A DNA stretch of 64,000 bases, from assembly GCA_029067085.1 (NCBI GenBank), contig JAIEFE010000014.1:308969-372968 (forward strand). The letters are read 5' to 3'. Source of the DNA: Lachnospiraceae bacterium (GTDB taxonomy: Bacteria; Bacillota; Clostridia; Lachnospirales; Lachnospiraceae). Positions within the stretch are counted from its first letter, which is position 1, and the number at the start of each line of letters is the position of its first letter. The notes beneath the pieces were generated by a model. The model did no database searches and was not told the origin of the DNA. It worked only from the letters and a program-made list of their open reading frames with translations. Below are positions 3,703 to 9,111 of this stretch, piece by piece. Made by a program: the position numbers and the translations under genes.

Positions 3703-5295
3703 TCAAAAACTCTGATACAAAAACGCCGCTGTGTCATAGCTGCCGCCATAGATTCCCGTGATCAGAAGAAGGAACACCACGCCGTAATAGCAGCTCCAGC
3801 GGAGAATCAGCGGACAAGCTGCCAGATCCCGGCGTACATCCCTGCCCCGCTCCTCCCACACCGAGACGCAAAGCCAAAACAGACAGGCCGCCAGCAGAAG
3901 CAAAAAGCCATATTTACTCAGGCCGTAAGAAGTCACGGCAAAGAGCGATGCCTTTGCCTGAAAACCGGTAAGAAGCGCCCGATAGATGCTTCCCGCCTGG
4001 GAAAGGCTCTCCGCCCGGATAAGCACATCCGCCACAAACACGATCAACCAGGTCCTCGCCATGCAAAACAGGGCATAACCCTTTCCCTCCTTCACATGAA
4101 GCTTCTCTTTCCATATGCCATACTTCGATTCCAATACAAGAGACACGCTCATGATCACGCCGTAATAAACGCCCCAGAGAATATAACTCATCGTTCTGCC
4201 GTGCCACATGCCCGTAAAGAGCCATACCAGCATAGTGCCCAGCACACTGGTCACATGTTTTCCGGCATTGGGCCATCTCTTTTTTGCGGCTTTTCCGATC
4301 TTACGACCTGGGGAAGACATCACGAAGGAAAACATCACATAGTCCTTAAACCAGGCTCCCAGTGTGATATGCCACCTGCGCCAGAACTCCGCCACAGACT
4401 TGGAAAAATAGGGCCTTTTAAAGTTCTCCGGCAGCACAATGTCAAAAGTCTCACTGACTCCCAGCGCCATATCCATATAGCCCGAAAAATCCGCATAAAG
4501 CTGCAGCATATAGAGCACCACCGCAAGCGCAAAGATACCGCCCGGCACTGTTTCTGCATCGCTTCCGAATACATTGCCCACAAAGATGCCGATCCTGTCC
4601 GCGATCACCAGCTTCTTGAAAGCGCCCCACACGAACCGCTGCAGGCCAAAGAGCATTCTTTCGTAGGTAAAATCATGCATCCTCTCAAACTCTGCCTTAA
4701 GCTTGGCATAGCGGTTGAAGGGTCCCTGAGTGACAGACGGAAAATAGGCCAGAAACAATACTAATTTAACCGGATTTTCCTCCGCTTCGCACTGCTCCCG
4801 TCCCACGTCCACCAGATAGCCGATGGCTGTCAGAGTATAAAAGGAAACGCCAAGAGGCATCACCACCCTGGCAAAAAAGACATCGCTTCGCAGGGTAGAC
4901 AGTCCGGCATTTTGCATAAACGGCAGAAGCACCACCATATATTTTGTGCCCAGTAAAAGTCCTAAATTCAACACAAAAGAAAGGATTTGAGCGCGTTTTC
5001 TGCGCCTCTCAAATCCCAGCTTCATCGACTTTTTTTTCTCTTTTTCCACACAATCCGCAAGTGCCTGCGCCTGCTTTGCAAAGCTGTCCTTCAGGTACAT
5101 CCCGCAAAGCCAGGTACTCACCCCGGTAAACAGGATTCCCACAGGGATTCCGCCTGTACCGATTACATAAAACAGGGCACTGGCCACAGACAAAACCACC
5201 CACTGCCGGTTTTTCGGCACCAGGTAGTAGAGGGCGAAAGAGATCACCCATAGTATCACAAAACCACTTGATAACAATATCATGAATGCCTCCAT
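3703..5295 (-). CDS. MBOAT family O-acyltransferase (DltB/AlgI-like)
   Basis: 530 aa multi-TM protein with FFPS-like YFPSVTQGPFNRY, PYFSKSVAEFWRRWHITLGAWFKDYV, and GMWHGRTMSYILWG (catalytic His region). Confidence 0.93.
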   Translation of the reverse strand: MEAFMILLSSGFVILWVISFALYYLVPKNRQWVVLSVASALFYVIGTGGIPVGILFTGVSTWLCGMYLKDSFAKQAQALADCVEKEKKKSMKLGFERRRKRAQILSFVLNLGLLLGTKYMVVLLPFMQNAGLSTLRSDVFFARVVMPLGVSFYTLTAIGYLVDVGREQCEAEENPVKLVLFLAYFPSVTQGPFNRYAKLKAEFERMHDFTYERMLFGLQRFVWGAFKKLVIADRIGIFVGNVFGSDAETVPGGIFALAVVLYMLQLYADFSGYMDMALGVSETFDIVLPENFKRPYFSKSVAEFWRRWHITLGAWFKDYVMFSFVMSSPGRKIGKAAKKRWPNAGKHVTSVLGTMLVWLFTGMWHGRTMSYILWGVYYGVIMSVSLVLESKYGIWKEKLHVKEGKGYALFCMARTWLIVFVADVLIRAESLSQAGSIYRALLTGFQAKASLFAVTSYGLSKYGFLLLLAACLFWLCVSVWEERGRDVRRDLAACPLILRWSCYYGVVFLLLITGIYGGSYDTAAFLYQSF

Positions 5296-5298
5296 TCG

Positions 5299-5349
5299 GA
5301 GAATGCACGCATTCTGGGCATTCTCCTGCGTTAGAAATTTTTCTAACGC
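5299..5349 (-). repeat. Leader hairpin element, copy 2 (ACP/MBOAT junction), plus adjacent perfect 10-bp palindrome
   Basis: GGAGAATGC...GCATTCTCC and GCGTTAGAAA-TT-TTTCTAACGC (5328-5349, overlapping the ACP stop codon). Confidence 0.6.
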
Positions 5350-6472: not shown

Positions 6473-8011
6473 CTATTGTATGTATTCTTTCAGCTTCACC
6501 CGGTCGATCTTGCCGTTGGCATTGATAGGCATTTTTTCCACTGTAATCACCTTATTAGGCAGCATATACTCCGGCACCAGATGAGAAATCTTTTCATTAA
6601 TAAAAGCCTTGTCAAGCGCCTCCTCGATAAAGAGCACGATCTTCTGGCGCTTCTCGTCGTATAAGCAGCAGCACAGCGTGATCTCCTCCAGAGAGGAAAC
6701 TGCCGTCTCGATCTCTCCCAGTTCAATCCGGTGTCCCATATGCTTGATCTGGAAATCTTTCCGGGAAAGGTAGATGATCTCCCCGTACTCATTGTATTTG
6801 ACGATGTCTCCCGTCCGGTAGATCTGCTCCGGCACCGCCTGATTTAAAGGATTCTGCACGAAAGCTTCCCTGGTCTTTTCCGGATTTTTATAATAGCCCA
6901 TGGACAGGGATGTGCCCCTGACACAGAGTTCTCCCGGCTCCTCCCCCGTCACCAACTCATCCTTCTCATTTAAGACCAGAATGTCCGTGTTCGGCATCGG
7001 TATACCGATGGGCAGCGGTTCCTCGTCTGCAAACTCACGGTCTACTATATAATAGGTGCAGGCATCTGTGATCTCCGTGGGACCATAGAGATTCGCGTAC
7101 TGCACATCCGGCAGAAACTTACGCCACACGTTGAGCTGCTTGTTGGGCATCACCTCGCCGCAAAAAAGCACCCGCCGCAGGGTATCCGACAGATCCACAT
7201 TGCGGAACGCCTTGAGCTTCGCCACCACGATCAGCGCCGAGGGCACCCAGAAAATAGTGTTGATCTTCTTCTCCCGCAGGTACTCAAGCAAAGGCACCGG
7301 CTGGGCAAAAAGATTTTTCGGAATGATGTATGTAGTCGCCCCCGTTTTCAGGGTGCTGTATATATCCAGAATCGAATTGTCAAAGTAAAAAGGCGCCTGA
7401 TTGCCAAAGCTGTCCCGCTCCGTGATCGCAAAGGTTTCCGTCACCCAATCGATATAGTCGATCACAGCACGATGGTTGATCGTCACGCCTTTGGGCACAC
7501 CCGTAGAACCGGAGGTAAAGAGCACATACAGAAGATCGGTATCGATGCCCCGCTTCCTGGCTGCATCCAACGCCGCCTCCTTTTCAGTATCCTGTTCCTC
7601 AGACGCTAAAACCTCTTCCAGAAGAAGAAATTCGCCCTGATAATCATACTGTGAAAAAACCTCCCGAAGGGACGCCGTAGTGATGACCACTGCCGGTTCC
7701 AGGACCTCCAGGATCTTATTGACACGGCTTCCCGGCATGTCCACATCGATGGGAGAATAGAAATTACAGCTATAGGCCGCCCCCATGAAGGAGGTGAGCA
7801 CGTCCACTCCCTTCTCCAGAAAAACAGCCACAGGCTTTTTAAACAGGCCCTTCTCCGTCAATTCACAGGCAATGTTCCGCGCCTGACGCCTGAGTTCTCC
7901 AAAGGTGATCTCTTTCTTTGCATCCGCATAGGCCGGCTTATCGGGAAAACGCTTCGCCGTCTCATCCAGCCAGTAGGTAACGTTCGCTTTCATGTCTTTC
8001 CTCCATGCCAC
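6473..8011 (-). CDS. Amino acid adenylation (A-domain) enzyme, DltA-like
   Basis: A3 YVLFTSGSTGVPKGVTINH, A4 APFYFDNSILDIYSTL, A5 NLYGPTEITD, A7 YRTGDIV, A8 GHRIELGEIE, A10 NANGKIDR; 512 aa. Confidence 0.93.
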   Translation of the reverse strand: MAWRKDMKANVTYWLDETAKRFPDKPAYADAKKEITFGELRRQARNIACELTEKGLFKKPVAVFLEKGVDVLTSFMGAAYSCNFYSPIDVDMPGSRVNKILEVLEPAVVITTASLREVFSQYDYQGEFLLLEEVLASEEQDTEKEAALDAARKRGIDTDLLYVLFTSGSTGVPKGVTINHRAVIDYIDWVTETFAITERDSFGNQAPFYFDNSILDIYSTLKTGATTYIIPKNLFAQPVPLLEYLREKKINTIFWVPSALIVVAKLKAFRNVDLSDTLRRVLFCGEVMPNKQLNVWRKFLPDVQYANLYGPTEITDACTYYIVDREFADEEPLPIGIPMPNTDILVLNEKDELVTGEEPGELCVRGTSLSMGYYKNPEKTREAFVQNPLNQAVPEQIYRTGDIVKYNEYGEIIYLSRKDFQIKHMGHRIELGEIETAVSSLEEITLCCCLYDEKRQKIVLFIEEALDKAFINEKISHLVPEYMLPNKVITVEKMPINANGKIDRVKLKEYIQ

Positions 8012-8040
8012 AACAGTTTACTGATGTGACACGCCTCGCA

Positions 8041-9111
8041 TTACGGCGCCACAATCACGGGATAGTAAGTATCCGCCGTTTTCTCTGTCTTCACATGGTA
8101 CACATCATACAAATCTGTCATCTCGAGGCCGCATCCCGCCGGATCATAGGAACCATAGAGCGCAATTCCTCTCTCTTCCGCCAGTTTTTTCAGTTCTTCC
8201 TCCACCTCCAGCGTGATCTGAAAGGCCTCCTCAGATTCTATGTAATTATACATCATGGGCGAATAGGGTGGCAAGTATAAAATGACCTCCACGCCTGCCT
8301 CCTGCATATGCTCGATCAGCGCAGAAAGGTCCACAAAATGGTTAAAATCTATCTCACGATAGTCGGTCATGCGGTAGACCACATGCTCCTCCATGGCCTG
8401 CCTTGTCATCTCCTCCACTTCCTCTGCTCTCACCTCGCGAAGCTCCCGCTGATAACTGACACTGCCGTCAGAATGTTTGAGATATCCGTCCGTCTCCCAA
8501 TCTTCCGTATAGGAAACGGAAAACCGTTTGTTTTCGGGGAGCAGGGTCACATTATAGCGAAAATAATCCAGAGAAAGCGTTTTGGGGAGATCCCTTCCCG
8601 TGTCCTTTGACGGAAGCGAAGGGTTCCGCATAGCGTCCAACAAAGAATCCATATAGTCAACGTAAGACTGCAGTTCTTTCCATTTCTCATTGTCATGGCT
8701 TCTGTTAAAAAGAAAAGGATCCACCCCGATCACCACAGTCTCCGGCAGCTTATCCTGCTGAAAGAGAATACCTGCCACCGCGAGGAGATCATAGATCGTG
8801 GCCTCCGACAGCCCCGCATTATAAAAGGAATCCGTCTCAAACATGGTATGGTCGAAGGTATACACCCTGCTGGAACCCAGAATCATTGTCTGAAACGGCT
8901 CCTCCTGACTGCTCAGACGGGCGGCCACCAGATTCCTGTCATTATAATCGGACTCCTCGAGACCCTCAACGTTCCTTCCCGCTGCCATCTGTGCCGCGAT
9001 ATCATCATAAGTGACCCGCAGCAGCGCGTAGGAGTCTACATACCAGTTCACGATTCCTATAAAAAGAAGCACCGGCAAAAGGAAGAGCACCGGCTTGTAC
9101 CATTTTTTCAT
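8041..9111 (-). CDS. Membrane-anchored SGNH/DltD-like protein, putative acyl-transfer partner of the MBOAT protein
   Basis: N-terminal TM anchor (KPVLFLLPVLLFIGIVNWY), MILGSSRVY (GxS) and C-terminal DVYHV (DxxH). Confidence 0.7.
   Translation of the reverse strand: MKKWYKPVLFLLPVLLFIGIVNWYVDSYALLRVTYDDIAAQMAAGRNVEGLEESDYNDRNLVAARLSSQEEPFQTMILGSSRVYTFDHTMFETDSFYNAGLSEATIYDLLAVAGILFQQDKLPETVVIGVDPFLFNRSHDNEKWKELQSYVDYMDSLLDAMRNPSLPSKDTGRDLPKTLSLDYFRYNVTLLPENKRFSVSYTEDWETDGYLKHSDGSVSYQRELREVRAEEVEEMTRQAMEEHVVYRMTDYREIDFNHFVDLSALIEHMQEAGVEVILYLPPYSPMMYNYIESEEAFQITLEVEEELKKLAEERGIALYGSYDPAGCGLEMTDLYDVYHVKTEKTADTYYPVIVAP

What the first reader, a model, noticed from the sequence alone, without database searches (positions are those of the whole stretch)
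3703..9111. A dlt-like operon with an inserted formyltransferase: possible N-formyl-aminoacylation of a surface glycan
Seen: in transcription order, an SGNH/DltD-like protein, an A-domain enzyme with all core motifs, a formyltransferase with N-x-H, LLPxYxG and the downstream Asp, a carrier protein, and an MBOAT acyltransferase, with gaps of about 8-50 bp. Established knowledge: DltA/C/B/D move D-Ala from AMP to carrier to MBOAT to an extracellular polymer, and in the linear gramicidin synthetase LgrA an F domain formylates an aminoacyl group held on a carrier. The A4 motif YFDNS keeps the Asp that normally binds the alpha-amino group, so an alpha-amino acid substrate is plausible. Inference: the enzyme set could make formyl-aminoacyl-S-carrier and pass it to the MBOAT protein, placing a formylated (uncharged) aminoacyl ester on a glycan. 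That would reverse the usual effect of D-alanylation, which adds positive charge. I know of no described pathway with this logic.
Basis: partly seen in the sequence, partly recalled or inferred. Interest (0 to 1): 0.87.

Follow-up and report, generated by a model that had tools for sequence, protein, structure and literature searches.

The report
Dlt-like glycan tagging with carrier formylation
Gut bacteria of the family Lachnospiraceae carry a gene set that appears to pick an amino acid, hang it on a small carrier protein, cap it with a formyl group and export it onto a surface sugar polymer; this would be an uncharged variant of the classic D-alanine tagging system, and it belongs to a wider group of such sets with swappable editing enzymes.

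Summary
The minus-strand operon SGNH–A–FT–ACP–MBOAT is intact, with all catalytic motifs. The formyltransferase (FT) is one clade, apart from the cluster's second formyltransferase. In 80 loci found by FT motifs alone, an adenylation (A) gene lies within 2.5 kb in 72 and both A and carrier (ACP) in 67, including Methanocorpusculum, Planctomycetia, Bacteroidales, Desulfonema and an Anaerolineae MAG. A sugar aminotransferase is near in only 6. Every FT-linked A enzyme readable there keeps the amino-binding Asp (76/76), so formylation probably follows loading. In sister cassettes with the same A pocket, the FT slot is filled by a BtrK-like PLP decarboxylase, always A>X>ACP (11/11), with MBOAT next in 9. 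When MBOAT is missing, AAC(3) or GNAT transferases flank A-FT-ACP. FT therefore most likely edits the aminoacyl-carrier, as the LgrA F domain does. The MBOAT ends in the FxYxxF acyl-shuttle hexapeptide (73/80), known from DltX and PatA, so the formylaminoacyl group probably goes Tyr to SGNH Ser to glycan. The amino acid and the acceptor are unknown. I found no published description. Verdict: a new variant of a known kind.

The parts
8041..9111 (-). SGNH-type single-pass membrane protein (DltD/PatB-like role): predicted final transferase to the glycan
   Evidence: G79-S80-S81-R82 and D336-x-Y-H339 essentially invariant in 43 relatives; AF2 model best PDB match DltD, weak
6473..8011 (-). Stand-alone amino-acid adenylation enzyme (DltA-like role), pocket code DNLFLCLDAK (window A residues 211,212,215,254,282,284,308,316,317,501)
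   Evidence: TIGR01733 above cutoff, DltA equivalog not met; code nearly invariant in the FT-linked window clade down to 58% identity; a DltA-like reference has DLMVLCTVCK
5584..6444 (-). N10-formyl-THF-dependent formyltransferase, predicted to act on aminoacyl-S-ACP
   Evidence: PF00551; AF2 pLDDT 96.8, Foldseek to ArnA/Fmt/FdtF/WbkC; N104, H106, D142 invariant in 89
5343..5576 (-). Carrier protein (DltC-like role); phosphopantetheine Ser32 in GVIDSF
   Evidence: PF00550 just above cutoff, DltC models below cutoff; Ser conserved 102/102
5481..5483 (-). ACP Ser32 codon, predicted phosphopantetheine site
   Evidence: DSF motif, Ser 102/102
3703..5295 (-). MBOAT acyltransferase (DltB-like role), catalytic RRWH
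   Evidence: PF03062; DltB is the only PDB match, 2e-26; RRWH W/H 81/81
3706..3723 (-). C-terminal hexapeptide FLYQSF of the MBOAT, matching the FxYxxF acyl-shuttle motif
   Evidence: 73 of 80 related MBOATs end in FxYxxF; motif of DltX/PatA described in PMC12148441
9108..10790 (-). DUF6020 multi-pass membrane protein, overlaps the SGNH start by 4 bp; conserved neighbour, role unknown
   Evidence: PF19484; found in 41 of 80 related loci
2824..3582 (-). Conserved downstream neighbour resembling a polysaccharide deacetylase by eye; no family match
   Evidence: no Pfam; present in 38 of 80 related loci
806..2713 (-). Asparagine-synthase-like amidotransferase, conserved downstream neighbour
   Evidence: PF00733/PF13537; present in 37 of 80 related loci

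Best explanation
This is a Dlt-like, carrier-dependent glycan aminoacylation cassette with a built-in editing step. The A enzyme adenylates a free alpha-amino acid and loads it on the ACP (inferred from family and from the conserved amino-binding Asp). The formyltransferase then formylates the amino group of the carrier-bound aminoacyl thioester with N10-formyl-THF (inferred). The MBOAT takes the N-formylaminoacyl group from the ACP to the Tyr of its own C-terminal FxYxxF tail. The SGNH protein takes it over on its Ser and transfers it to a hydroxyl of the exported polysaccharide built by the surrounding 64-kb cluster (inferred from the PatA/PatB and Dlt mechanisms). The result would be an uncharged N-formylaminoacyl ester instead of the cationic D-Ala ester. 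FT is one of several interchangeable tailoring genes in the slot between A and ACP.
For: (1) In 80 genome loci retrieved only by FT peptide motifs, A lies within 2.5 kb of FT in 72, ACP in 70, both in 67, MBOAT within 6 kb in 58. This holds in several bacterial phyla and in the archaeon Methanocorpusculum, where A-FT-ACP stands alone among unrelated genes. Gene order is shuffled in some loci, so linkage is not just frozen order. (2) A stop and FT start overlap by 4 bp in many loci. (3) Slot swap: with the same A pocket type DVKxxSxCNK the gene between A and ACP is either FT or an alanine-racemase-fold PLP decarboxylase (11/11 A>PLPDC>ACP, MBOAT next in 9); 32 of 34 such decarboxylases in the family sample lie within 1.5 kb of A. 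BtrK, of the same fold, decarboxylates carrier-bound glutamate (PMC7857480). (4) When MBOAT is missing, AAC(3) or GNAT transferases flank A-FT-ACP, so the triad is the unit. (5) FT-linked A enzymes keep the Asp for the free alpha-amino group in 76/76 readable cases, versus 15/20 in FT-less cassettes: the amine is free at activation, so formylation comes after. (6) FT phylogeny is a single clade (SH-aLRT 99) and FT distances track A distances (Mantel r 0.80, 0.92 in the MBOAT subset). (7) MBOAT C-terminal FxYxxF 73/80; mechanism PMC12148441. (8) Precedents: LgrA F domain formylates Val on PCP (PMC8150014); an N-formyl-L-alanyl group exists in the V. anguillarum O2 O-antigen (PMC10059132).
Against: No biochemistry. 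By profile, the closest solved relative of FT is the sugar N-formyltransferase WbkC (5e-33), ahead of the LgrA F domain (about 1e-17), and the model matches ArnA/FdtF folds. FT and A distances would correlate in any co-inherited operon. Part of the FT clade sits in 3-ketoacyl-synthase/reductase contexts without MBOAT, some with A or ACP several kb away. SGNH identity is weak. The amino acid cannot be read from the code and the acceptor is unknown.
Confidence: 0.68

Rival explanations
1. FT is a sugar N-formyltransferase acting on a nucleotide- or lipid-linked amino sugar, and merely sits inside a normal aminoacylation operon.
For: Closest PDB profile match is WbkC, a GDP-perosamine formyltransferase; the cluster has a 4,6-dehydratase and two DegT aminotransferases that could make a 4-amino sugar.
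Against: A sugar aminotransferase is within about 10 kb in only 6 of 80 FT loci versus A in 74. The cluster already has a second, ArnA-like formyltransferase with the C-terminal domain at 14184-15104, which lies outside the clade. A-FT-ACP occurs alone in Methanocorpusculum. FT is replaced by a PLP decarboxylase in the same slot.
Confidence: 0.13
2. FT formylates the free amino acid or aminoacyl adenylate before loading, so A activates an N-formyl amino acid.
For: Not excluded by gene order; free-substrate formyltransferases exist.
Against: The amino-binding Asp of the A4 motif is kept in all 76 readable FT-linked A enzymes and would be pointless for an N-formyl substrate; the LgrA precedent acts on the carrier (PMC8150014).
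Confidence: 0.07
3. The N-formylaminoacyl-ACP is made, but the group ends as an amide on an amino sugar or on another acceptor, not as an ester on the exported glycan.
For: In MBOAT-less loci the partner is AAC(3) or GNAT, which form amides; the only glycan with an N-formyl-alanyl group I found is an LPS O-antigen.
Against: The window and most Lachnospiraceae loci have MBOAT plus SGNH and the FxYxxF shuttle tail, the known machinery for O-acylation outside the membrane (PMC12148441).
Confidence: 0.1

Closest known systems
Dlt pathway (DltA, DltC, DltB, DltX, DltD): D-alanylation of teichoic acids
   Same: Stand-alone A enzyme, small carrier, MBOAT and SGNH membrane proteins; A pocket shares Asp235, Leu299, Cys301 and Lys517 with a DltA-like reference.
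   Different: Extra formyltransferase; different A pocket (DNLFLCLDAK vs DLMVLCTVCK); no separate DltX found among the cassette genes, the shuttle motif is the MBOAT's own C-terminus; all Dlt equivalog models below cutoff; lies in an exopolysaccharide cluster.
PatA/PatB-type MBOAT-SGNH acylation
   Same: FxYxxF hexapeptide at the MBOAT C-terminus (73/80) plus an SGNH partner.
   Different: Those systems are described as using acyl-CoA and lacking a carrier protein (PMC12148441); here A and carrier are present.
LgrA initiation module (F-A-PCP) of linear gramicidin synthetase
   Same: Formylation of an aminoacyl group held on a carrier by a PF00551 enzyme is the same proposed chemistry; A domains align well.
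   Different: Stand-alone proteins, not one NRPS chain; the FT profile is closer to WbkC than to the LgrA F domain; product goes to a glycan, not to a peptide.
BtrJ/BtrI/BtrK of butirosin biosynthesis
   Same: Free-standing tailoring enzyme acts on an amino acid bound to a free-standing carrier (PMC7857480); the same enzyme fold as BtrK occupies the FT slot in sister cassettes.
   Different: The tailoring enzyme in this window is a formyltransferase, and the acceptor is predicted to be a polymer.
Sugar N-formyltransferases (WbkC, ArnA, FdtF, VioF)
   Same: Same fold and catalytic Asn-His-Asp.
   Different: Genetic company is A and ACP, not NDP-sugar aminotransferases.

Membership tests
Dlt D-alanylation system | A enzyme meets the DltA equivalog model | tested here: not met
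   TIGR01734 328 bits vs cutoff 560; no TIGR01734 match at E<=1e-100 in the own genome
Dlt D-alanylation system | DltB equivalog MBOAT | tested here: not met
   TIGR04091 158 vs 375 bits, though DltB is the nearest solved structure
Dlt D-alanylation system | Carrier of DltC type with D-S motif | tested here: inconclusive
   Ser in DSF conserved 102/102, but DltC models below cutoff
Dlt D-alanylation system | D-Ala specificity of the A pocket | tested here: inconclusive
   Cys301 and Asp235 shared, 236/239/278/322/330 differ from a DltA-like reference that itself scored just under the DltA cutoff
Dlt D-alanylation system | DltX microprotein | tested here: inconclusive
   No dltX-like gene lies among the closely spaced cassette ORFs and the motif is fused to the MBOAT C-terminus; ORFs under 70 aa were not searched exhaustively
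MBOAT-SGNH glycan acylation | MBOAT with RRWH His and C-terminal FxYxxF shuttle | tested here: met
   motif definition PMC12148441
MBOAT-SGNH glycan acylation | SGNH partner with Ser and D-x-x-H | tested here: met
   GSSR and DxYH essentially invariant in 43; fold support only moderate
Carrier-acting formyltransferase (LgrA F-like) | Formyl_trans_N fold with N-x-H and Asp | tested here: met
Carrier-acting formyltransferase (LgrA F-like) | Genetic linkage to A and carrier | tested here: met
   67/80 loci with both within 2.5 kb
Carrier-acting formyltransferase (LgrA F-like) | Formylates aminoacyl-S-carrier | not testable with these tools
   needs intact-protein MS
Sugar N-formyltransferase | Linkage to NDP-sugar aminotransferase | tested here: not met
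   6/80 loci within about 10 kb
Sugar N-formyltransferase | Nucleotide-binding residues | not tested
   ligand contacts of WbkC/ArnA were not mapped; only fold and alignment seen

The most novel reading that the evidence does not exclude
Bacterial surface glycans are decorated by a modular, NRPS-like but free-standing system: an amino acid is loaded on a carrier, edited there by an interchangeable tailoring enzyme (formyltransferase, PLP decarboxylase, possibly a radical-SAM enzyme, with racemases feeding some cassettes), and delivered by an exchangeable transferase (MBOAT-SGNH outside the membrane, or AAC(3)/GNAT on amino sugars). The window shows the formyl version.
Probability: 0.55. Interest if true: 0.86.

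Novelty: new variant of a known kind. Interest (0 to 1): 0.78.

Why it matters
D-alanylation is the textbook way for Gram-positive bacteria to add positive charge to their surface. A cassette that caps the amino group before export would do chemistry of the opposite kind (a neutral, formylated ester) with the same machinery. N-formyl amino acids are also a bacterial signature sensed by host formyl-peptide receptors, so formylated surface esters in gut Lachnospiraceae would be of interest to host-microbe work (inference). The slot comparison suggests that such cassettes are a general, programmable system: A-domain hits occur in 70 of 150 sampled genomes of the family, and the PLP-decarboxylase version in 57 of 299. 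Chemistry and function are directly testable.

Tried and rejected
Literature searches for a described dlt-like operon with a formyltransferase found nothing; the library lacks most subscription papers. Reading the amino acid from the pocket code was not possible: DNLFLCLDAK matched no code I could verify here. I tried to see whether the T-W-H motif is special to carrier-acting formyltransferases, but it also occurs in relatives with Formyl_trans_C (P0173, P0187), and LgrA could not be brought to the top of an alignment, so it is not used as evidence. A search for a Vibrio relative as a positive control (N-formyl-L-alanyl in the V. anguillarum O2 O-antigen) found only a FT-like protein in Vibrio sp. 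Isolate32 (P0211) without context. A close A relative beside an NRPS (L159/L178) was checked for an F-domain fusion and has none.
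Full report
Observation. The window is 64 kb of contig C6 of a 3.76-Mb draft genome; its close relatives are Lachnospiraceae gut MAGs. 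The minus strand carries a long surface-polysaccharide cluster with glycosyltransferases, a PglF-type 4,6-dehydratase, DegT aminotransferases, a UDP-sugar dehydrogenase and a sugar transferase. Within it, five closely spaced genes read SGNH, A, FT, ACP, MBOAT, exactly as described. Families and motifs are confirmed. The weakest assignment is the SGNH protein: no significant Pfam or PDB sequence match, but GSSR and DxYH are essentially invariant in 43 relatives, and a mediocre AF2 model has DltD as its best PDB neighbour.

Conservation. The FT family was used alone, through two degenerate peptide motifs, to search one genome per species for 85,488 species. The 80 best loci were then examined for neighbours of window proteins. 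An A gene lies within 2.5 kb on the same strand in 72, an ACP in 70, both in 67, and a window-type MBOAT within 6 kb in 58; several exceptions are contig ends. The triad occurs in Lachnospiraceae, Oscillospiraceae, Methanocorpusculum, Planctomycetia, Bacteroidales, Desulfonema and an Anaerolineae MAG. Order is usually A-FT-ACP with short gaps or a 4-bp overlap but is rearranged in some loci (MBOAT-A-ACP-FT, ACP-MBOAT-A-racemase-FT, FT-ACP-A). In Methanocorpusculum A-FT-ACP stands alone, flanked by unrelated genes such as a tRNA synthetase.

What FT is. It is a PF00551 protein without a Formyl_trans_C match. AF2 gives a very confident model (pLDDT 96.8) that matches ArnA, Fmt, FdtF and WbkC. 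A family profile is closest to the sugar formyltransferase WbkC (5e-33) and further from the LgrA F domain (about 1e-17). In a tree with the cluster's second formyltransferase (14184-15104, ArnA-like, with the C-terminal domain) and other family members, the 41 FTs from this family form one clade with SH-aLRT 99; WbkC is its neighbour on a long branch. Ancestry is therefore likely sugar-formyltransferase-like; substrate must be judged from context.

Substrate of FT. Three lines point to the aminoacyl-carrier. First, A and ACP are the constant company, while sugar aminotransferases are near in 6 of 80 loci. Second, the A pocket: all 76 readable FT-linked A enzymes keep the Asp that binds a free alpha-amino group, so the amine is free when the amino acid is activated. 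The window clade's code DNLFLCLDAK is almost unchanged down to 58% identity and differs from a DltA-like reference, DLMVLCTVCK. Third, the slot: A-ACP-MBOAT cassettes without FT are common in the family (70 of 150 genomes have an A hit). In those with the second FT-linked code type (DVKxxSxCNK), the gene between A and ACP is a PLP decarboxylase (Pfam Orn_Arg_deC). The order A>PLPDC>ACP was seen in 11 of 11 loci examined, with MBOAT next in 9; 32 of 34 such decarboxylases lie within 1.5 kb of A. One cassette of this code, L162, has neither gene. BtrK, of the same fold, works on carrier-bound glutamate (PMC7857480). FT and decarboxylase thus occupy the same position beside the same A type; the simplest reading is that both edit the loaded carrier. 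Cassettes with code DAKCAGLGMK often have an Asp/Glu-racemase-like gene next to A, which suggests acidic amino acids for the Lys239 codes (inference).

Transfer. The MBOAT ends in FLYQSF. FxYxxF is the acyl-shuttle hexapeptide of DltX and of the PatA C-terminus (PMC12148441); 73 of 80 related MBOATs carry it, nearly all others being FxYxxY or truncated. That paper states that other MBOAT-SGNH pathways lack a carrier; here carrier and fused shuttle occur together, so the architecture is a hybrid of Dlt and Pat. When MBOAT is missing, AAC(3) (L098, L115) or GNAT (L099, L109) genes are adjacent, again leaving A-FT-ACP as the unit.

Shown versus inferred. Shown: gene order, motifs, conservation, slot exchange, FT clade, shuttle motif. 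Inferred: amino-acid activation, formylation on the carrier, Tyr and Ser relay, ester on the exopolysaccharide. Unknown: the amino acid, the acceptor hydroxyl, the biological effect. FT-A distance correlation (r 0.80 to 0.92) is compatible with function but also with simple co-inheritance.

Comparison. It works like Dlt plus an LgrA-type formylation step, but is not a member of Dlt by the curated models. It meets the MBOAT-SGNH features tested. N-formyl-L-alanyl has been reported on a Gram-negative O-antigen (PMC10059132), so the chemistry on glycans is not unheard of; a biosynthetic route of this kind was not found in the open library. Verdict: real, conserved, most likely a formylating variant of carrier-dependent glycan aminoacylation.

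Noticed in passing
L174-L177, L201-L207 (e.g. L176:6028-7233): A-PLP decarboxylase-ACP(-MBOAT) cassettes in 57 of 299 sampled Lachnospiraceae genomes (decarboxylase hits): apparently another undescribed carrier-editing glycan acylation system, with A code DVKxxSxCNK.
   Followed up: partly
L164, L168, L171, L173; L103:3642-4355: Asp/Glu-racemase-like gene (PF01177 in the two scanned) beside A-ACP-MBOAT cassettes with code DAKCAGLGMK, and between A and FT in L103: D-Asp or D-Glu may be the tagged amino acid.
   Followed up: partly
L160, L163, L165, L169, L172: A-ACP cassettes (four of five with MBOAT) whose A enzyme lacks the amino-binding Asp (code SM[TL]YLALDIK): probably activates a non-alpha-amino acid.
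   Followed up: no
window 14184-15104: Second formyltransferase in the same cluster, ArnA/PRK06988-like with Formyl_trans_C, next to an NAD epimerase; probably formylates an NDP-amino sugar, so the polymer may carry two kinds of formyl groups.
   Followed up: partly
L094:11187-12842: NeuB-SAF-formyltransferase fusion (551 aa) two genes after A-FT in a nonulosonate locus.
   Followed up: no
L158:9472-10551: Radical SAM/SPASM gene directly after A-ACP (A code DNLFLCLDVK, no FT nearby), with an AAC(3)-type transferase just before A: possibly a third carrier-editing enzyme.
   Followed up: no
L095, L096, L097: A-FT-ACP cassette in the archaeon Methanocorpusculum (54% FT identity), presumably transferred from gut Clostridia; no acyltransferase next to it.
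   Followed up: partly
L104-L106, L110-L113, L116, L117, L123-L125: Distant members of the FT clade sit with FabH-like synthases, short-chain reductases and extra ACPs: possibly a small amino-acid/ketide acyl pathway for sugar acylation.
   Followed up: partly
window 28327-29274: Semialdehyde-dehydrogenase family gene (ArgC-like by eye) inside the polysaccharide cluster, out of its usual arginine context.
   Followed up: no
window 806-2713 and downstream in relatives (e.g. L049 15.0k and 19.3k): Asparagine-synthase-like amidotransferases occur once or twice just after the cassette in many relatives; may amidate a uronic acid or the attached amino acid.
   Followed up: no
P0211: FT-like protein of 290 aa in Vibrio sp. 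Isolate32; V. anguillarum O2 O-antigen is reported to carry N-formyl-L-alanyl, so Vibrio O-antigen loci may hold a chemically characterised example of the pathway.
   Followed up: partly
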